Translations under genes and position numbers: made by a program
The notes under the pieces: generated by a model
What the model saw: the letters and a program-made list of their open reading frames with translations, nothing else
The model's database searches: none
What the model was told of the DNA's origin: nothing
Shown: positions 22,447 to 35,700 of the stretch, piece after piece
How positions within the stretch are numbered: position 1 is the stretch's first letter
Layout of the letters: each line of letters starts with the position of its first letter
Assembly: GCA_017480795.1 (NCBI GenBank)
Contig: JAFURY010000094.1
Location: forward strand, 1 to 64,000
Source: Succinivibrionaceae bacterium
GTDB lineage: Bacteria; Pseudomonadota; Gammaproteobacteria; Enterobacterales; Succinivibrionaceae
DNA length: 64,000 nucleotides
Direction: 5' to 3'

Positions 22447-22481
22447 AAAAGCCCTGAAAACTCAATGTTTTCAAGGCTTTT
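22447..22481 (-). terminator. Hairpin restoring the host tRNA terminator
   Basis: Minus strand AAAAGCCTTGAAAAC pairs with GTTTTCAGGGCTTTT and ends in TTTTTCTTTT, directly after the tRNA CCA. On integration it would terminate the reconstituted tRNA-Pro. Confidence 0.75.
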
Positions 22482-22482
22482 G

Positions 22483-22527
22483 TGGTCGAGGTGACAGGAT
22501 TTGAACCTGCGACCTTTTGGTCCCGAA
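22483..22527 (-). other. attP: attP core: 3' half of tRNA-Pro(CGG)
   Basis: On the minus strand the sequence runs from the anticodon loop TTCGGGA through the 3' anticodon stem, variable loop, T arm (GCAGG-TTCAAAT-CCTGT), acceptor strand CACCTCG and A-CCA. Upstream bases no longer pair with the anticodon stem, so tRNA identity begins at the anticodon loop, a usual crossover point for tyrosine integrases. Confidence 0.85.
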
Positions 22528-22859: not shown

Positions 22860-23473
22860 CGATTTTTCAAACGGCCCGCGCTGGAAGGGGTTGGGATGTC
22901 GCCGGTGTGGGTGGGAGGCCCTCGGACTTTCAAGGGGAGGGGGGAGTGGTCTCAATTTCAGCCAGCCGCCCGCCCAGGGGGAAAGCCTCGCGCTCAATCA
23001 AAATCAGCAGCGGAAAAAGCGGAAAAATCGACCGCTTGCCCAACACCGCGTAGCCCGCACCCCTTAAAGCCCGCGCTTTTCCAAAGGGAAAAATTATTTC
23101 GGCGGGCGCATACGCGCCCGAGAAAATGGCCAGGCGCTCCGCGCCCATTGAATAGCCAGGGTCGGCCTGCATCCTGCCCGCCACGCCCGCGCACAGCGCC
23201 ACGCACGCGCCCACACGGGGCGCAGGCAGGCCGACCCCACCCGCACCCATGCCCCGCGCTTCAGCGCCCGCACGGCCCCGCACCGGGGCTGACACGGCCT
23301 CGATTAAATAGCATGGCGCTCCGCGCCAAATAAAAATAGTGGGGTCGGCCTGCGTCCTGCCCGTCACGCCCGCGCACAGCGCCGCGCACGCGCCCACACA
23401 GGCCCTCAGCAGGCCGCCCCCGGCCCGCACCCATGTCCATTATTGCAGCGAGCACACGGCCCCGCACGGGCCG
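22860..23473. other. GC-rich structured non-coding stretch with imperfect tandem repeat
   Basis: No convincing gene. A block starting at 23159 is repeated at 23343 (period 184 bp); the first 60 bp match at roughly nine in ten positions. Each copy can form a long stem (GGGTCGGCCTGC at 23159 with GCAGGCCGACCC at 23226; partly kept in the second copy). An open 166-codon frame (22930-23430, -) has a composition like non-coding GC-rich DNA. A structured RNA is possible. Confidence 0.5.
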
Positions 23474-27800: not shown

Positions 27801-28145
27801 GATCTGGTTGCCGGTGTTGTTCATTTGCGCCGTGGCCCGGTTCAGCGCGATTCGCAGTTCGTCGGCCTGCTTGCTGTTTTTGCCGTAGACCTCCTCGGCC
27901 TTTTCCAGCTGTTCCCGGATAAGCTCAACCTTTTTGCTCTGCACCTCGTAGATTTCGCCCAGCTTCTCCATGCGGTCGTGCATCGCGTCCATGCTGTCGG
28001 CCTGCTTGCCGAAGGCCGACTGGCTGGCCTTCATGTCGCTGTTCAAAACCGCCAGCTGTCTGGAAATCTGCGAAAGTCCCTGTTTGTATTCCTTGTCGCC
28101 CATCAGGCCGACTTTCGTCTTGATGCCGTCGTTGTTGTTCGCCAC
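24876..28145 (-). CDS. Tail tape measure protein (out of usual position)
   Basis: 1089 residues from GTG 28145 (AAAGGGGG 7 nt upstream). N-terminus IKTKVGLMGDKEYKQGLSQISRQLAVLNSDMKASQS and a long coiled coil (about 20-125) are typical of siphovirus tape measures. About residues 613-790 hold four or more 38-residue repeats (I-D/N-W-x-G-L...VPNGL...GELLA). Sets tail length and is loaded by the G/GT chaperones. It lies after the lysis genes and a regulatory cassette, about 14 kb downstream of the distal tail gene in transcription order, instead of between the chaperone and that gene. Confidence 0.88.
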   Translation of the reverse strand: MANNNDGIKTKVGLMGDKEYKQGLSQISRQLAVLNSDMKASQSAFGKQADSMDAMHDRMEKLGEIYEVQSKKVELIREQLEKAEEVYGKNSKQADELRIALNRATAQMNNTGNQIKQTEGDLAKLADAQAVLGEEVINGSSTLKDAEKAMSDMAKASAEAAEAAEEAGDATEDAGDKADSGAGGMDAFKTALGAVGDVADNVKSGIGSVLDVLGDIGSAAAAAISEAFGLAKDAGKYADDLLTLSSQVGVDTDKLQQWQYASNFIDTSVETITGSMTKLTKKMASAQEEEKTQAEKWQEHLAKIAKGEKDTWSEVTTARDAFVTLGVSWTDFSGQLRDSEDVFMDCIDALGKIENPTERDALAMELFGKSAKELNPLIEAGSRAWRDMGKEAEAMGTVFSHENLDKMGAFDDSMQRFNATGQALANSIGLTVIPAFQPLVDAAANAMGGVSKALQEGVSPAEFEALMDDVLDDVEDALKQTGQFIEENLPVATEMLTRVADMLADALPGLVQALLPGAIRIVEGLGDAIAENAEAIGELAAAVMTAIGTALVTALPKIIEKLPEIFQGIWEGLTDSDWPGLGGDILGKIMEGLGGFGEKVAEIFTGGRDEAAKIDWDGVKEDLKAVGATLMELVPEVLAAGLEGAHGIIEGLNWPALGETIGHIANGLLGLTGELIAAPLEAGYGLIKGIDWMGLGETLAVVPNGLMDISGELLAQGFQNGHDLIEKINWSGLTDAMAAVPNGLIAAAGVGGEALSAPFELAYGVIKDINWEGLGSQIGDGLGRGLGVLAGVGDVALGLGEAAVGAGQQGVNALKKWISSWGEDEGVETEATAVGAGVITDISTGVTDTVPDLETTAEEASNKLLDAIRGVLTEETVEKIGKDLDEDLWTGIVLGEDELLDVIGGVAGDAYDELTQAVTDAKFDNIGEQMDNGVIEGINRGSPRIESAARAAAAAAYAAACAELQVNSPSKKGAYLGEMFDLGFAEGLMDNADEIEDAMGYLNGLAVAEPEPGFAGFGGSGTQAASEAVDYAAIRDAFVEAIEETGVGYNVIAMDGQIVGETIEPYSSRATAQRQKQSVKGRTARLVMA

Positions 28146-28164
28146 GCTTATACCCCCTTTGCAT

Positions 28165-28195
28165 AAAAAGGGCACCCACCGTTAAGTGAGTGCCC
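28165..28195 (-). terminator. Terminator between cassette and tape measure gene
   Basis: Minus strand GGGCACTCAC pairs with GTGGGTGCCC (one G-T) over TTAACG, followed by TTTTT. The T run is 6 nt from the tape measure ribosome binding site. Confidence 0.85.
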
Positions 28196-28211
28196 GAATC
28201 GTTCCCTTTTG

Positions 28212-28430
28212 CTACGCCGCGCCCTTCATCATCTGCACCATCGCCGTGCTGTCGTCCACGTCTGCCCGGATGCTCTGCAAACTCTCGGCAATGTGCCACA
28301 TGACATTATCCATGTCCGCTGCATCCATGCTCCCGGCCCCTGCCAGCGCCCGCGTCACCGCCTCCAGCGCCGCCAGCGAGTGGTCGATGTCCTGCAGCTT
28401 GCTCCAAAGCGCTTCCCGCATGTCTCCCAT
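28212..28430 (-). CDS. Small helical protein of the peptide cassette
   Basis: 72 residues from ATG 28430 (GAGGAGGGG upstream, overlapping the end of the peptide gene before it). All-helical: MREALWSKLQDIDHSLAALEAVTRALAG, then MDAADMDNVMWHIAESLQSIRADVDDSTAMVQMM. Unknown; could be an antitoxin-like or immunity partner of the hydrophobic peptides, or a minor phage protein. Confidence 0.65.
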   Translation of the reverse strand: MGDMREALWSKLQDIDHSLAALEAVTRALAGAGSMDAADMDNVMWHIAESLQSIRADVDDSTAMVQMMKGAA

Positions 28431-28432
28431 GT

Positions 28433-28516
28433 TCAGCCCCTCCTCATGTCCATGATTATCAGAATGATTATCGTAATATCCAGAATGATGTGAACAATAT
28501 CCATCGCCATGCTCAT
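28433..28516 (-). CDS. 27-residue hydrophobic peptide
   Basis: ATG 28516 with GGGAGGATGG upstream; stop TGA at 28433-28435, two bases before the next ATG. Sequence MSMAMDIVHIILDITIIILI then IMDMRRG: a single Ile-rich membrane helix with a basic end. Size and make-up are like holin-type or type I toxin peptides. Confidence 0.55.
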   Translation of the reverse strand: MSMAMDIVHIILDITIIILIIMDMRRG

Positions 28517-28595
28517 TTTTCCATCCTCCCATTGACTTATCGTCGCTTTTATGTTATCCTATGGGTGGTCAGGGGATGTGCAGTCCCCCGGCCAC

Positions 28596-28721
28596 TCATC
28601 TGATGATCTTGCTAAGCAAGTCGATGATTTTGCTCAGCAGGTCGAGCGCCACCGTGAGCAGGACGATGATTTTGACGGCCACGTCCAGCTCACGGCCTTT
28701 TTTGTTGCGGCGCTTGCTCAT
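28596..28721 (-). CDS. 41-residue hydrophobic peptide under consensus promoter
   Basis: ATG 28721 with AAAGGGGGTG upstream. Basic head MSKRRNKKGRELD, then a hydrophobic/amphipathic helix VAVKIIVLLTVALDLLSKII with a repeated LLSKII. Driven by a perfect TTGACA-N17-TATAAT promoter. Resembles small membrane-active peptides of type I toxin systems, but no antisense RNA is evident; an Arc-type regulator lies divergently. Confidence 0.7.
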   Translation of the reverse strand: MSKRRNKKGRELDVAVKIIVLLTVALDLLSKIIDLLSKIIR

Positions 28722-28746
28722 TTGTTCACCCCCTTTCGATGGTATT

Positions 28747-28775
28747 ATTATACTATTAGGGCACTAAAATGTCAA
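28747..28775 (-). promoter_or_regulatory. Perfect consensus promoter of the peptide cassette
   Basis: Minus strand TTGACA (28770-28775), 17-bp spacer, TATAAT (28747-28752). An operator copy fills the spacer. Confidence 0.9.
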
Positions 28776-28806
28776 TTAGTGCCCTTGTTAAATTTTAGTG
28801 CCCTTA
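28758..28806. promoter_or_regulatory. Operator cluster of the RHH/peptide cassette
   Basis: Three copies of TTAGTGCCCT: inverted at 28758-28769 (AGGGCACTAAAA), direct at 28776-28786 and direct at 28793-28806 (TTTTAGTGCCCTTA). They lie in the spacer of the leftward promoter, just upstream of its -35, and against the -35 of the rightward promoter. Confidence 0.8.
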
Positions 28807-28835
28807 TTGTTTGGCTGTATTGAATGTGATACAAT
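28807..28835 (+). promoter_or_regulatory. Promoter of the RHH gene
   Basis: TTGTTT (28807-28812), 17-bp spacer, TACAAT (28830-28835), 20 bp before the start codon; abuts the third operator. Confidence 0.7.
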
Positions 28836-28854
28836 GATGGGAGGAGGTGTCATT

Positions 28855-29073
28855 ATGTCTGCAAAACAGAACACAAACACGGTTCAAAAATGGATGAATG
28901 AGAATACCGACCTAATCAGAATCCACACCCGCAAAGCTGACCAAATCCCGCAGCGCATCCAGCAGGCGGTAGACGCGGGCCTGTCGAAGTCCCGCCAGTC
29001 CTACATCATCGAAGCCGTGAAGGCCCGCCTCGACGCCGACGGCATCCCCGCTGCCGACGTTTCGGAGGATTGA
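28855..29073 (+). CDS. Arc-type ribbon-helix-helix regulator
   Basis: 72 residues from ATG 28855 (GGGAGGAGG upstream). DLIRIHTRKADQIPQRIQQAVDAGLSKSRQSYIIEAVKARLDADG is a ribbon-helix-helix pattern (strand, then two helices with S-R-Q-S-Y-I at the second). The only rightward gene between the integrase/attachment region and the second-copy repressor. Probably autoregulates and represses the divergent peptide promoter through the three operators. Confidence 0.82.
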   Translation: MSAKQNTNTVQKWMNENTDLIRIHTRKADQIPQRIQQAVDAGLSKSRQSYIIEAVKARLDADGIPAADVSED

Positions 29074-29077
29074 ATCA

Positions 29078-29097
29078 GGGAGGGCGTTTGCCCTCCC
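29078..29097. terminator. Hairpin between convergent RHH and holin genes
   Basis: GGGAGGGC / GCCCTCCC with a 4-nt loop; weak T runs on either side. It may end both transcripts. Confidence 0.5.
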
Positions 29098-29101
29098 CTT
29101 G

Positions 29102-29554
29102 CTATTCTTCTTCCCCGTCGTTCTTGTCCCGCAGCGCCTCCAGCGCTTTCCGCAGCGGCTTCGGAATCGGCACGCCCATGAGCCCCGCGTTTTCGGTGAT
29201 GCTCAGGGCCTCCGTGGCGATGTAGAAAAACTCGGCAGCCGACCGAAACATGACCACGTTTTCAGAACCGCCGCCCGCGCTGCCCAGCGCCTTGTCCAGC
29301 TGGGCCGCCACCAGAATCACGGCCATCACCAGCGCTTTTTTCAAAAGCCCCAGGAAGGCCACCTGGCTCCAAAAGTGCCCGGTTTCGGTCTTGGTGCTGT
29401 GCCCGGTCAGGGCGCAGGCGCACCCGCTCACGTAGTCCACCACCATCAGCGTCACCAGCACCCGGCTCCCGGCAGTCCAGCCGCCGTACCATCCCGCAAT
29501 CACACCGATGGCGGCGGCAAGCCACCGCACTATTTCACCCCAGTATTTTTCCAT
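29102..29554 (-). CDS. Holin (toxin-secretion/phage-lysis type)
   Basis: 150 residues from ATG 29554 (GAGGGAGAA upstream). Three to four hydrophobic segments: IVRWLAAAIGVIAGWYGGW, VLVTLMVVDYVSGCACALTG, FLGLLKKALVMAVILVAAQLD and FRSAAEFFYIATEALSITENAGLMGVPIPKPLRKALEALRDK. These match the holin_4/phi CP39O family. It releases the endolysin. Confidence 0.88.
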   Translation of the reverse strand: MEKYWGEIVRWLAAAIGVIAGWYGGWTAGSRVLVTLMVVDYVSGCACALTGHSTKTETGHFWSQVAFLGLLKKALVMAVILVAAQLDKALGSAGGGSENVVMFRSAAEFFYIATEALSITENAGLMGVPIPKPLRKALEALRDKNDGEEE

Positions 29555-29775
29555 CTGTTCTCCCTCGCTTTCAAGAAATCTTCTACCAAAACCCCGCCGG
29601 TGACGTCCTTCCCGCAGCACGGACACCGGGCGCGGTAGTAGTAGCCGTTTCGGAAGTCGTTTTGCGTGGTGTATTCATGGCGCTCCGCTTCAAACTCGCA
29701 GTCGCACCCCCGGCACACAAAACGCACCACGGGCCTGTGCGGGATCCCGTTTCTAAGCACTCGCACGGTCACCAC
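29530..29775 (-). CDS. Zinc-ribbon protein in lysis module
   Basis: 81 residues. Two knuckles, FVCRGCDCEFEAE and ARCPCCGKDV, form a classic zinc ribbon. Overlaps the holin start by 25 nt. Found in lysis regions of related phages; function unknown. Confidence 0.72.
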   Translation of the reverse strand: MVTVRVLRNGIPHRPVVRFVCRGCDCEFEAERHEYTTQNDFRNGYYYRARCPCCGKDVTGGVLVEDFLKARENRWKNTGVK

Positions 29776-31057: not shown

Positions 31058-31225
31058 TCAGCACCATCCCTCCATATCCTCGCGGAGCTTCTGCTCCGCT
31101 GCTTCCAGTTGCCCGTCCTCGGTTTCAATGCCGTGCATGGCCAGCAGCTCGGCCTGCCGGTTGATGATGTCCAGCGCCATGCGCAGCATGTCCTCAAACC
31201 GCGCGATGATTTCCAAATGGCTCAC
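31058..31225 (-). CDS. 55-residue helical protein between RT and endolysin
   Basis: GTG 31225 (AGGGGG upstream), stop TGA abuts the endolysin ATG. MSHLEIIARFEDMLRMALDI then INRQAELLAMHGIETEDGQL: helical, acidic. Overlaps the RT C-terminus by 32 nt. Similar small genes precede lysis modules in Clostridia phages. Too short for a classical DGR Avd protein (about 120 residues). Confidence 0.65.
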   Translation of the reverse strand: MSHLEIIARFEDMLRMALDIINRQAELLAMHGIETEDGQLEAAEQKLREDMEGWC

Positions 31226-32279
31226 CGGGCACCCGCCCCCTCGCTACATTCTTGATCTTGTGCCGGTCTAACCCGCCGAAGTAGCGCCGCTTCGCCTGCA
31301 CGCAGTCGGCGTGCTTCAGGCTCCCGGCCCGGCTCAGTATGCCCGCTGCGGCATGGAATGAGGGCAGCCGCCCTGCGGCCAGGGCCTTGCCCACCTTCCT
31401 GCATTGTCGGGTGAATCGCAAAAACGGCTTCGCCCGCAGGCGGGTGTGGCTGTGAAAGAACCGATAGCCCACGAAGTTCACGCCCCGCGCGTCCACCGGG
31501 AACACCTGCCAGTCGCCCTTCAAATGGACGCCCAGCTGCTCCCGCAGCCGCTTGTCGATGGCCTTCACGGCCCGGTGCAGCTTTTTCTTGTTCGGCCCCA
31601 TGAGCACCATGTCGTCCATGTTCCGAACGTAATACTTGACCCCGTCCAGCGTCAGGATGAAGGTGTCCACCGCCTCCAGGTTGAAGTTCGCCAGCCATTG
31701 GTTCGGGTAAAACCCGATGCCCAGCCCCGGCAGCGGATTCGACCGCACCACGCTTTCCACCAGCCGGAGGAAGCGCTCGTCCTTGATCTTGTGCCGCAGC
31801 CTGCCCATGAGGCCGTCAATATCCATGCTCGGGTAATAGTGCCGGATGTCCAGCTTTGCGCAGTATTTCGTGCCGCGCGGATCTCCGTCCAGCGCCCGCC
31901 GCACGTACTTCCTCGCCCAGGCGTTCCCACGTCCGGGGATGCTCGCGCAGCTGAAGCGGTACATGCCCCGCATGATGACCGGCTCCATGGCCATCACGAT
32001 CAGCTGGTGCATAATGCCGTCCGGGTAAAATGGCACAATCGTGATGTCCCGGTCTTTCCCGCAGCTCTTGTCGTGGATGTGCTTCACCTTCGGCCTGGTC
32101 GGCGTGTAGGTGCCCGTGACCAGCAGGTTGTAAACCTTGTCCACGTATTTCTCCGGGTCTTTCAGCACCCGCCGCACGTCCCGGCGGTGCTTCTTTTTCT
32201 TGCTGCCATTCCTGATGGCCAGCCGGATCTGGTCTTTGTCGCACATCTTTTCGTAAAGATGGCCCACCCTTTTAGGCAT
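31194..32279 (-). CDS. DGR reverse transcriptase
   Basis: 361 residues. Motif A AKLDIRHYYPS (Asp144), group-specific motif GFYPNQ (189-194, in place of the retroviral QGxxxSP and like the DGR G-x-x-x-S/N-Q), and the catalytic pair Asp222-Asp223 in YYVRNMDDMVLMGPNKKKLH, where the usual YxDD Tyr is Asn. AAGGAGG precedes the start. Copies the template RNA with errors at adenines to diversify the receptor-binding protein gene. Confidence 0.92.
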   Translation of the reverse strand: MPKRVGHLYEKMCDKDQIRLAIRNGSKKKKHRRDVRRVLKDPEKYVDKVYNLLVTGTYTPTRPKVKHIHDKSCGKDRDITIVPFYPDGIMHQLIVMAMEPVIMRGMYRFSCASIPGRGNAWARKYVRRALDGDPRGTKYCAKLDIRHYYPSMDIDGLMGRLRHKIKDERFLRLVESVVRSNPLPGLGIGFYPNQWLANFNLEAVDTFILTLDGVKYYVRNMDDMVLMGPNKKKLHRAVKAIDKRLREQLGVHLKGDWQVFPVDARGVNFVGYRFFHSHTRLRAKPFLRFTRQCRKVGKALAAGRLPSFHAAAGILSRAGSLKHADCVQAKRRYFGGLDRHKIKNVARGRVPGEPFGNHRAV

Positions 32280-32455
32280 GATCCATAAATGCCTCCTTGT
32301 TTACCTCGGGACGTTTCGAGGCGCGGCCCCCGCCCGGCCCCACTGGGGTGGCGGTTGGCCGCGTCCTACTATGCCCCGTCCTGTCGGTAGAATTTTCAGC
32401 CAGTGCTGCGGAGATACCCACGCAATGAATAACAAGCGATATTTATAAACAAGGT

Positions 32456-32589
32456 GACGGGAGCCGATGTTCGCGTTCGCGTTGGTCGTCGAGTTGTTCG
32501 CGTTGAAGTAGAAAGCACCGTAGTTCCCGTTGGCGTTGTAGTTGCCGCCACAGTACAGCACCCGGACGCCGGAGCTGTTGGAGTTCACG
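32456..32589 (-). repeat. DGR template repeat (TR)
   Basis: 134 nt matching the variable repeat at 32732-32865 except for 15 bases, all adenines on the TR coding strand. Rich in AAC codons (12 of the 13 variable codons are AAC). It lies between the RT and the target gene and is not translated as part of a gene. Confidence 0.95.
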
Positions 32590-32690
32590 GAGCGTAAAAT
32601 CGGCCCAAAGCGTGAGTATCCCCTTGCTTTATTACATCAATGGAATCAGTCCTTTCGTGTAGTTACGCAGCATAGCCTTGATACGTTCCC

Positions 32691-32706
32691 GGGGGCTGCG
32701 GCCCCC
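32691..32706. other. GC hairpin downstream of the variable repeat
   Basis: GGGGGC-TGCG-GCCCCC, 6-bp stem and 4-nt loop, 8 nt after the target-gene stop. DGRs carry such a hairpin/cruciform just past the initiation-of-homing site. Confidence 0.7.
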
Positions 32707-32714
32707 AGTCCCCC

Positions 32715-35700
32715 TCAGGGATTGTAAAGGAGACGGGAGCCGATGTACGCGTACGCGCTGGTCGACGAGTAGTCCGCGCCGAAGTAGAAAGCACCGTAGC
32801 CCCCGTAGGCGCTGTAGTAGCCGCCACAGTACAGCACCCGGACGCCGGAGCTGTAGGAGTACACGTAATCCGGGATATAAGTAGTTTCACTACCGCTGCT
32901 TGCAGTGTCCGGGATAAACGCCCACGGGCACTTATCCGAATAACCAAGGCCGGTAATGTAACCGCTGCTGGGCAAGGTGATGCCCGCAGCCTCCATGCCC
33001 GAAGTGGATTCTCCATAGCTCGCCGGGTCGGTGCTGATGTAGCTGGCCCTGCTGCTGGCCACGTAGCCGTCCACCCAGGTCAGCATATTGCTGAACGGGT
33101 TCTCGATCCAGCGGTAGGCGTTGGTCGCGCCGCTGCGCTTGATGGTGTGGTAGGTCGCGCCCGTCGTCCCGCCGGTGTTGGTCACGCTGCCGGTATTGTG
33201 GCCGGTGCCCAGCACGTCCTGCGCGTGGAAGTTCGCAAACTCCACCAGGTAGAGCATCTGGATGGCGCTCCAGACCTTCAAATCCATCTGCCGCCAGCCG
33301 GTGCCCTTCGCCGCCGAGTACGTCCTGAAGTTGGCGCGGGTCACATTGCCCAGCGGGGCCACGCCGCTCTTGGAGTACACCGCGCTGCTGCTGCCGCTGG
33401 TGTGGAAGCGGCCCACGTACACGCCGGAGCCGGGGTGCTTTTCGTAGCCGGTCTTTGCCGTCGGGCTGATTGCCCACGTCCACCGGGTGTTGTCGGTGTT
33501 CTTTTCCGCCTTGTAGTAAAACTCGGGGATATAGACCACCGTGTCGTTGTTGGTCTCGTCGAAGCTGGCGTCGGTGTCGGGCACCAGGGATCCGTTCACC
33601 ACGTTGTAGCGCTTCATGTCCTTCCACGGCGCAACGGTATCAAACGGCGAGGAGCCGCTGCCGGACACGCTGGTGGCCGGGACGGGATCCGCAAAGCTTG
33701 CAGCCAGGCCACCACGGGCCAGGCCGGTCTTGTTCTGCGAGTAATCCCACTGGGCCGCATAGGTGCCGGTCACGTCAAAGGTCGGATCAGTCCAGACCGT
33801 GCCGGACGCCTCAAACACCGCAGTGTAGGTCGTGTTCGCGTGGATCACGCCCAGGGCCGGGCTCCAGTCCTTGAATTTGTACCCCTCGCGGGTAGTGGTC
33901 GGCGTCGTGATGCCGTCGGCGGTCACCGTCTGGCCGTCCTGGTACTGCTTCGTCCCCAGCGTCTGCCCGCCGTCCTCCGCTGCGGTCACGAAGGTGGCCG
34001 TGTAAACGGGGATGTAGCTGGCCTTGTAGGTCTGCGGCCCGGTCACCGTGGTGATGGTCGGGCTCCAGCCCTGGAAGGGCTTGCTGGAATCCGTCTTGCT
34101 CACCGGCGTGCCGCCCTTGTAGCTGGGCTGATCGCCATAGTTGTAAGTCTCGGTCGCCAGGGCGCTGTTGTCGTCGTTGACCCAGTTGATGGTATAGCTG
34201 CGCACCGTGCGGCTGTAGGCCGCGTACAGCGTCAGGTCGCTGTCGCTGACCGTGCTGGCGTCAAAGTTCGCCGTCTGGGCGTCCTGCGCCGTGTTCCAGC
34301 CCACCGCAGCGAAGGTGTGCTGGTCGGTCTGCGTCCGGGCAGGGACGCTCGGCAGCGGGCCGTTGGGCCTGCCGTCGGAATACTCCACCGTGCCGATGGT
34401 CGTCGAGCCGTCCCAGCTCTTGAAGGTCTTGGTGGAGGAAGTGTGGTCAGCGGTCACGTTGATGGTGGGGTAGCGCTCCTTCCAGCGGGCGATGTCGTCG
34501 CCGCGCAGGGAATCGGCGTGGATCGTGCCGCTCACCTGGGCGTCGTCCACTTCCTCGCCCTGGCCCTGGCCGTTGATCTCAATGCCGCGCATGGTGTCCA
34601 GCTTGTCCATGAGGGCGTCAATTTCCGCTGCGTTCGCCGCCTCCCAGTAGAAGCCGGTGATGCGCACGGCGGTGCCCGTGGGCACGCGGTTCAGAATCGC
34701 CTTGCTGTCCAGGCCAGTCATGTTTTCCAGCCAAAGCTGGTCGATGTTGTCCCAGCCCTCCAGCACCAGGTTCGCGTCCGTCAGCCGGGGCTGGTTGCGA
34801 ATCACCAGGCTGCTGGTGGTCGCGGGCAGCTTCAAAACGTCCAGCACGCCGCCGTTGGGCAGGTCAACGCCCTGGAGCGCCGTGCCCGTCGCGTACACCT
34901 TCTGGAGGTTGGGGCACTGGGTCAGCGTCAGCACCTTCTGGGTATCGGTGCCGAAGTTCACGCAGCCCGTCAGCTCCACCAGAGTCAGCTTCTTATTTGC
35001 GCCCGCCGACACTTCTGTGGTCATTTCGTTGCGGTAGCCCGCCTCCTGGCTGCCCAGACGGATGGCCTGGAGGTTTTCGGCCTTGGAGCCGTCGAAATAC
35101 TGCACGTTCAGCTTTTCAAGGCCGAAGATGTCCTTAATCATCTTGGCGCTGTGCAGGTTGCACACGGCCTGGTTGGCGTCCGTGTAAGGGTTCTCGCACT
35201 GATACGTCAGCGTGTCGCCCACCAGACGCCCGCCGGTGGCGGTGTCGTCCCACAGCAGCTTCACGTAGCCCTTTTTGTACAGCTCCACCGTCACATCGTA
35301 GTCGCCGCTGGCCCGCTGCGCCTCCGTAATGTGGTAGTAGGGCCGGAACATGATGGTCTGCAGCGCGTCGCCCGCGTCGAACAGACTGTCACAGTAGGGG
35401 AAGCGCCAGGTCAGGAAGTCGGTGCGGTGGCCCTGCTTATTGCCCAGCGCCATGGACAGGTAGGTCGTGATGCCGTCGGTGCGCAGCGGGTTGGTGTACT
35501 TGTACTCGCCGTCCTCGTTCCACATGGCCTCCGGCCAGTTGCCCTGCCAGACGTCGATCAGCGCGTTGATATACTCCGCCGAGAACATGCCGGTGGAGCG
35601 CATCCGCTGATACGTGGTGCAGCAGCGATCCCAGAAGGCCTGCCGGAAGTTCACCCACTTCACGTTGTCCTGGCCGTTGTAGACATTCTTGCCGCCGACC

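What the first reader, a model, noticed from the sequence alone, without database searches (positions are those of the whole stretch)
28596..29097. Divergent RHH regulator / small hydrophobic peptide cassette with three shared operators
A perfect TTGACA-N17-TATAAT promoter drives a 41-residue membrane-type peptide leftward, while a second promoter drives an Arc-type ribbon-helix-helix gene rightward. Three copies of TTAGTGCCCT cover both: one in the peptide promoter spacer, one upstream of its -35, one against the -35 of the RHH gene. Hairpin terminators bound the cassette (28165-28195 and 29078-29097). This is a self-contained moron-like unit: an unusually strong promoter held off by its own repressor, expressing potentially membrane-active peptides. 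I know no named system with this architecture; toxin-antitoxin, superinfection exclusion or lysis timing are possible roles (inference).
Basis: partly seen in the sequence, partly recalled or inferred. Interest (0 to 1): 0.82.

Follow-up and report, generated by a model that had tools for sequence, protein, structure and literature searches.

The report
Repressor-locked prophage toxin-like peptide cassette
A gut-bacterial prophage carries a small inserted cassette of two membrane peptides that seems to be held off twice, by its own DNA-binding repressor and by a predicted antisense RNA; the same repressor switch, with different operator 'keys', controls other genes in related mobile elements.

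Summary
A perfect TTGACA-N17-TATAAT promoter and three exact TTAGTGCCCT sites separate a leftward 41-aa peptide gene from a rightward 72-aa RHH-like gene. The leftward operon is longer than reported: 41-aa P1, 27-aa P2 and a 72-aa protein. It is a moron: two related rumen-type phages have the holin joined directly to the tape-measure gene, without the cassette. The phage is a 41,086-bp temperate siphophage, also found integrated at a tRNA-Pro in a Clostridia MAG.

(1) The RHH/three-operator/divergent-promoter switch recurs in five other genomes with much the same geometry but different operator sequences; in three it drives an ArdC anti-restriction operon. (2) P1 and P2 have homologues at other loci, apparently chromosomal where flanks were read. 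Every copy (5/5) has a predicted promoter between P1 and P2 pointing back over P1, plus a GC hairpin. This is the layout of the SPbeta yonT/yoyJ/SR6 type I toxin-antitoxin system.

Best reading: a type I-like two-peptide locus placed under an RHH establishment switch, a doubly locked burst module. Toxicity, the antisense RNA and RHH binding are predictions. New variant of known kinds.

The parts
28855..29073 (+). 72-aa RHH-like regulator gene (predicted autorepressor)
   Evidence: ORF with strong SD; homologues in several genomes of one bacterial family; RHH fold not proven by sequence
28807..28835 (+). PR, promoter of the RHH gene: TTGTTT-N17-TACAAT with extended -10
   Evidence: 8/12 match, -35 just beyond O3 as in the homologous modules
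28795..28804 (+). Operator O3, beside the -35 of PR
   Evidence: exact repeat; same place in homologous modules
28776..28785 (+). Operator O2, directly upstream of the -35 of PL
   Evidence: exact repeat; same place in homologous modules
28758..28767 (-). Operator O1, in the spacer of PL
   Evidence: exact repeat; same place in homologous modules
28747..28775 (-). PL, TTGACA-N17-TATAAT promoter of the peptide operon
   Evidence: 12/12 consensus; homologous promoters 12/12 or 10/12
28596..28721 (-). P1, 41-aa cationic/hydrophobic peptide gene (toxin candidate)
   Evidence: SD AAAGGGGG; homologues L062, L063, L068 and decayed L069; internal repeat differs only synonymously
28565..28595 (.). GC hairpin directly after the P1 stop; near the 5' end of the predicted antisense RNA
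   Evidence: hairpin in 5 of 5 homologous gaps
28532..28560 (+). Predicted antisense promoter TTGACT-N17-TATCCT, extended -10 TG
28567..28785 (+). Predicted antisense RNA over P1 (start approximate; end unknown, O1/O2 inverted repeat is a weak terminator candidate)
   Evidence: promoter and hairpin prediction only
28433..28516 (-). P2, 27-aa hydrophobic peptide gene
   Evidence: SD GGGAGG; P2-type peptides follow P1 in L062, L063, L068
28212..28430 (-). 72-aa acidic protein of unknown function, third gene of the operon
   Evidence: SD inside the P2 tail; homologue in the L062 locus, 35% identity, E 6e-12
28170..28195 (-). Terminator hairpin between the operon and the tape-measure gene
   Evidence: 11-bp stem and T-tail; a hairpin stands at the same place in L015 and L016
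29078..29097 (+). Hairpin after the RHH gene, weak terminator
   Evidence: 8-bp stem, poor T-tail

Best explanation
The cassette is a moron in a temperate Clostridia phage, inserted between the holin and tape-measure genes. It joins two modules. Module 1 is an RHH-type autorepressor with three operators that shuts a consensus promoter PL (O1 in its spacer, O2 behind its -35) and damps its own promoter (O3). Module 2 is a type I toxin-antitoxin-like operon: hydrophobic peptides P1 and P2, with an antisense RNA started between them, pointing back over P1 and beginning with a stable hairpin. In a lysogen the RHH protein blocks transcription and the antisense RNA disposes of leaked P1 mRNA. When phage DNA enters a cell without repressor, or the repressor is diluted, PL fires a burst of membrane peptides until repressor and antisense RNA accumulate. 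P1 probably inserts in the membrane and depolarises it, as TisB does. Shown by sequence: anatomy, insertion, homologous switches and homologous peptide loci. Inferred: protein-DNA binding, the antisense RNA, membrane action, toxicity and the burst.
For: Empty site in L015 and L016. Same cassette, identical, in an integrated prophage. Same RHH/three-operator/divergent-promoter arrangement with different operators in L042, L043, L044, L047, L048. ArdC operon behind three of these switches. P1-hairpin-P2 loci in L062, L063, L068 and decayed in L069; third gene shared with L062. Antisense promoter in 5/5 gaps, shuffle p 0.001-0.011, P1 strand control 0.43; genomic controls 0.0007-0.043 and 0.003-0.05. 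P1 net charge +6 in four copies. yonT/SR6/yoyJ has this gene order; tisB is locked by LexA plus an antisense RNA; Reg_p576 is an RHH repressor of a transient establishment promoter.
Against: No transcript, binding or toxicity data. The promoter test followed a pattern seen by eye and the five copies share ancestry, so combined p-values are optimistic. The window's antisense promoter is only 9/12. P1/P2 match no known toxin family in Pfam or NCBIfam. P2 has no clear SD in L068 and P1 no start codon in L069. The RHH fold is unproven: no Pfam hit, profile comparison with Arc/CopG/NikR probability 0.3%. The third gene is unexplained.
Confidence: 0.5

Rival explanations
1. An establishment burst without toxin function: P1, P2 and the 72-aa protein are early anti-defence or membrane-modifying factors made briefly on DNA entry, then shut off by the RHH repressor, as Reg_p576 does for ardC. 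Any antisense RNA only sharpens the shut-off.
For: Homologous switches drive ArdC anti-restriction operons in three elements; Reg_p576 precedent; the third gene is not toxin-like.
Against: P1/P2 homologues also stand at apparently chromosomal sites with other regulators, where an entry burst has no obvious use; the conserved antisense layout is typical of toxins.
Confidence: 0.22
2. One reading: an RHH-repressed membrane-peptide moron acting in the lysogen, for instance in superinfection exclusion, with no antisense RNA.
For: Moron anatomy and autorepression; autorepression leaves a basal level in the lysogen; small membrane proteins of prophages often exclude other phages (general knowledge).
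Against: Ignores the antisense promoter in 5/5 gaps; a consensus promoter covered by two operators suggests tight repression in the lysogen.
Confidence: 0.15
3. The + strand promoter at 28532-28560 serves mainly as a second promoter for the RHH gene, and its overlap with P1 is incidental.
For: It points towards the RHH gene and the hairpin between them is only a weak terminator candidate.
Against: The promoter is also present at L063, L068 and L069, where the sequence read upstream of P1 shows no divergent RHH gene.
Confidence: 0.08
4. Lysis-timing accessory: P1/P2 are pinholin- or antiholin-like helpers of the neighbouring holin and endolysin.
For: Position beside holin and endolysin; small membrane peptides.
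Against: Relatives keep holin and endolysin without the cassette; homologues outside phages; own repressed promoter.
Confidence: 0.03
5. Type II toxin-antitoxin pair with the RHH protein as the protein antitoxin of P1.
For: RHH antitoxins are common in type II systems (general knowledge); the best PDB sequence match, not significant, is antitoxin MazE4, E 0.28.
Against: The genes are divergent, not an operon; homologous RHH proteins control unrelated cargo; P1 homologues occur with other regulators.
Confidence: 0.02

Closest known systems
yonT/yoyJ/SR6 type I toxin-antitoxin system, Bacillus subtilis prophage SPbeta (PMC5848175)
   Same: Prophage; one mRNA with a first and a second small toxin gene; antisense RNA promoted between them and running back over the first toxin; downstream genes on the same mRNA.
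   Different: No sequence relation was tested or claimed; YonT is 58 aa; no dedicated divergent repressor with operators was described in the parts read; here the antisense RNA is only predicted.
Reg_p576 establishment regulon of conjugative plasmid p576 (PMC8708921)
   Same: Small RHH autorepressor that shuts strong establishment promoters, including that of ardC, giving transient expression after entry; our homologous switches also drive ardC.
   Different: Reg_p576 operators are paired TTATCCC heptamers upstream of the -35; here TAG-N-CTA type operators sit in the spacer, behind the -35 and beside the divergent promoter; the window cargo is peptides. No sequence comparison with Reg_p576 was made.
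P22 immI region (Mnt, Arc, ant)
   Same: RHH repressors, divergent promoters, operator between -10 and -35 of a strong promoter (from general knowledge, not read here).
   Different: Cargo is an antirepressor; operators are different; homology not shown.
tisB/istR-1 of Escherichia coli (PMC8309996)
   Same: Toxin peptide under two locks, a transcription repressor and an antisense RNA; amphiphilic helix with a narrow strip of alternating charges, as in window P1 (D13, K17, D27, K31, D34, K38).
   Different: Repressor is the global LexA, not a dedicated gene; IstR-1 acts at the 5' region of the mRNA; no second peptide.
Type I toxin-antitoxin systems of Clostridioides difficile prophages (PMC6563280)
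   Same: Clostridial prophages, small hydrophobic toxin, convergent antisense RNA.
   Different: Those toxins have a hydrophobic N-terminus and a lysine-rich C-terminus; P1 is the reverse. The terms 'repressor' and 'two toxins' did not occur in that review.

Membership tests
Type I toxin-antitoxin system | Toxin under 60 aa with a hydrophobic membrane segment and charged end | tested here: met
   P1 41 aa, 19-residue GRAVY 2.2, net +6
Type I toxin-antitoxin system | cis-encoded antisense RNA overlapping the toxin mRNA | tested here: inconclusive
   Promoter and 5' hairpin predicted in 5/5 copies; RNA not observed
Type I toxin-antitoxin system | Overexpression is toxic and the RNA relieves it | not testable with these tools
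   needs expression experiments
yonT/yoyJ/SR6 | Order toxin 1, opposing antisense promoter, toxin 2 | tested here: met
   Anatomy in window, L062, L063, L068
yonT/yoyJ/SR6 | Sequence homology of the toxins | not tested
   YonT sequence was not at hand; no Pfam or NCBIfam match of P1/P2 homologues reached the curated cut-off
RHH (Arc/Mnt/CopG) repressors | RHH fold | tested here: inconclusive
   No Pfam hit; weak PDB match to MazE4 in register; profile comparison uninformative; poor single-sequence model
RHH (Arc/Mnt/CopG) repressors | Operator repeats at own and divergent promoter | tested here: met
   Three sites in window and in five homologous modules
Reg_p576-type establishment regulon | Autoregulated small repressor plus strong promoter of establishment genes such as ardC | tested here: met
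   By anatomy: ArdC behind homologous switches L053-L055; in the window itself the cargo is peptides
Reg_p576-type establishment regulon | Paired TTATCCC heptamer operators upstream of the -35 | tested here: not met
   Different operator sequence and placement
Phage moron | Extra unit with own promoter and terminator, absent from relatives at the same site | tested here: met

The most novel reading that the evidence does not exclude
The rightward promoter at 28532 makes one RNA that is both the antisense antitoxin of P1 and, by read-through of the weak O1/O2 hairpin, the messenger of the RHH repressor, so RNA and protein locks are made together. The RHH three-operator switch is a diversifying family of mutually insulated 'keys' that mobile elements of this bacterial family swap between cargoes (ArdC, peptides and others).
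Probability: 0.15. Interest if true: 0.78.

Novelty: new variant of a known kind. Interest (0 to 1): 0.6.

Why it matters
If true, it adds a clostridial family of two-peptide type I-like loci found in a prophage and at apparently chromosomal sites, and shows a toxin-like operon captured by a phage and placed under an entry-burst repressor otherwise seen here with anti-restriction genes. The six homologous repressor/operator sets, similar geometry but different operator cores, are a natural data set for how such repressors change specificity and for building insulated switches in gut Clostridia.

Tried and rejected
IMG/VR searches with the RHH protein, the 72-aa third-gene protein, RHH profile A1 and the L031 RHH protein: no relatives. 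IMG/VR with P1 profile A3: none confirmed. INPHARED and PLSDB tblastn with the RHH protein, and INPHARED with its L031 homologue: none; INPHARED with the L062 P1 and third gene: nothing relevant. DNA scan for the O1/O2 inverted repeat: one unrelated hairpin, L014. DNA scan for TTGACANNTAGN6CTATGRTATAMT: 32 viral loci, none with a set of three operators and an RHH gene, so that promoter string alone is not diagnostic. Rfam: nothing in the cassette. Single-sequence structure model of the RHH protein: pLDDT 60, too poor to search. Weak P1 profile hits: L072, L075 and L077 were inspected and do not look like the locus; L070, L071, L073, L074, L076 and L078 were not inspected.

Full report
Observation. 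The reported elements are all present. The three TTAGTGCCCT sites are exact and are the only matches in 64 kb even with one mismatch. PL is a 12/12 match. The leader of P1 would be about 19 nt and that of the RHH gene about 12 nt, each with an SD sequence (direct reading; start sites inferred from the -10 boxes). The leftward operon is longer than reported: P1 (28596-28721), P2 (28433-28516), a 72-aa gene (28212-28430), then a terminator (28170-28195).

Context. The window is G000:C76:1-64000. The contig (73,830 bp) contains 1.8 copies of a 41,086-bp unit at 99.997% identity, so it is a circular or concatemeric phage genome. PHROGs identify terminase, portal, tape measure, holin, endolysin, integrase, primase, methyltransferase and a reverse transcriptase. 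The same phage, identical through the cassette (28000-29700), is integrated in MAG RGIG4372 (Clostridia, roe deer jejunum) between 50-bp repeats at a tRNA-Pro (tRNA identity by reading). The G000 bin carries a TonB-receptor-like gene (by reading), so the phage contig may be mis-binned there (inference).

Moron. L015 and L016 align to this phage over holin and tape-measure genes at about 74-85% DNA identity. In both, the holin stop is followed by a short hairpin and the tape-measure gene, without the cassette. The insertion therefore lies between holin stop 29102 and the hairpin at 28195. The third relative, L017, has other genes there and is not informative.

RHH switch. Close sequence searches found only the identical copy, but profile A1 and then the L031 protein found homologues in other genomes of the same bacterial family. 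Of these, L042, L043, L044, L047 and L048 have the same arrangement: a leftward consensus-like promoter with an operator in its spacer (12/12 in L042, L043 and L044; 12/12 with an 18-nt spacer in L048; 10/12 in L047), a second operator directly upstream of the -35, a third against the -35 of the RHH gene, and the RHH gene rightward. Operators have the form TAG-N6-CTA with different cores: TAGGATATCCTA, TAGGTAGCACTA, TAGTGTGGGCTA, TAGCTTCACCTA, TAGCGCAAGCTA. O1 and O2 centres lie -11 and +9 from the -35 centre, except O1 at -17 in L048, whose O2 is also imperfect; L042 has the same 20-bp O1-O2 spacing and a 12/12 promoter (the 8/12 line for it is an artefact of the cut region). In the window, O3 is about 11 bp nearer, one helical turn. 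L046 has a decayed version, and L020 a more distant one with ATTCCGGAAT repeats. Cargo differs: L053, L054 and L055 carry ArdC with both its domains, in L053 and L055 after a small gene. The window RHH protein is a homologue of these (37-48% identity), but the fold assignment by sequence remains inconclusive.

Peptide cargo. P1 homologues occur in G1025 (L062), G1038 (L063) and G969 (L068), and a decayed one in G1016 (L069). L062 has P1, hairpin, P2, an inserted RHH-like gene and a homologue of the 72-aa protein (35%, E 6e-12); its contig begins with an operator-like palindrome TAGGGTGCACCCTA just before the -10. L063 has P1, hairpin, P2 and an RHH-like third gene; L068 has P1, hairpin, P2 and an HTH gene. 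L062 and L063 stand among what read as housekeeping genes. P1 carries net charge +6 in the four intact copies, with polar residues at heptad spacing most clearly in the window and L062 copies. The DLLSKII repeat in the window P1 differs at three sites, all synonymous, which supports the reading frame.

Antisense layout. In each P1-P2 gap the strand opposite to P1 carries a sigma70-like promoter with a TG extended -10, followed by a GC hairpin and then the P1 complement. Scores beat dinucleotide shuffles in 5/5 gaps (Fisher 6e-10, limited by 1000 shuffles), while the P1 strand of the same gaps does not (Fisher 0.43); hairpin Fisher 8e-6. Against random genomic windows and against windows downstream of ORFs the scores are in the top 0.07-4.3% and 0.3-5%. 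I noticed the pattern by eye before testing, and the copies share ancestry, so the combined p-values are optimistic. This is the gene order of yonT-SR6-yoyJ.

Mechanism. With autorepression, PL is off in a lysogen and free on entry to a repressor-less cell; Reg_p576 works so for ardC. A toxin whose only antitoxin is a cis-encoded transcription repressor cannot kill cells that lose the element, because the gene is lost too; an antisense RNA acting on a longer-lived mRNA can (inference). The double lock resembles LexA plus IstR-1 on tisB. I commit to a type I-like two-peptide locus under an RHH establishment switch, at about 0.5; the burst-only reading is the main rival.

Limits. There are no expression, binding or toxicity data; the third gene is unexplained; the antisense 3' end is unknown, and the O1/O2 inverted repeat is only a weak terminator candidate. 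P2 lacks a clear SD in L068 and P1 lacks a start codon in L069 (direct reading).

Noticed in passing
window 31194-32865 (RT 31194-32279, TR 32451-32589, VR 32727-32865): Diversity-generating retroelement caught in action: two copies of the same phage differ at 20 positions in all, 16 of them in VR, and all 16 fall at adenines of TR; TRs are identical. An RT-18 RNA family match lies at 32293-32408.
   Followed up: yes
window 41087-64000: Assembly concatemer: repeats window 1-22914; features there are second copies of the same phage genome.
   Followed up: yes
window 22478-22527: attP core: this 50-bp stretch flanks the integrated copy at a tRNA-Pro in a Clostridia MAG.
   Followed up: yes
L053, L054, L055: ArdC anti-restriction operon with a resolvase-type gene behind the same RHH three-operator switch; likely establishment regions of other mobile elements.
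   Followed up: partly
L032, L039, L040 (G767:C5:18325-19571): Three RHH-like genes in tandem with repeated flanks, weak relatives of the window regulator.
   Followed up: no
window 23124-23470: An imperfect 166-bp repeat pair (80% identity) of unknown meaning near the integrase end.
   Followed up: no
L069:410-543 (-): Molybdenum cofactor riboswitch on the fragment that holds a decayed P1 copy, which argues for a chromosomal site.
   Followed up: no
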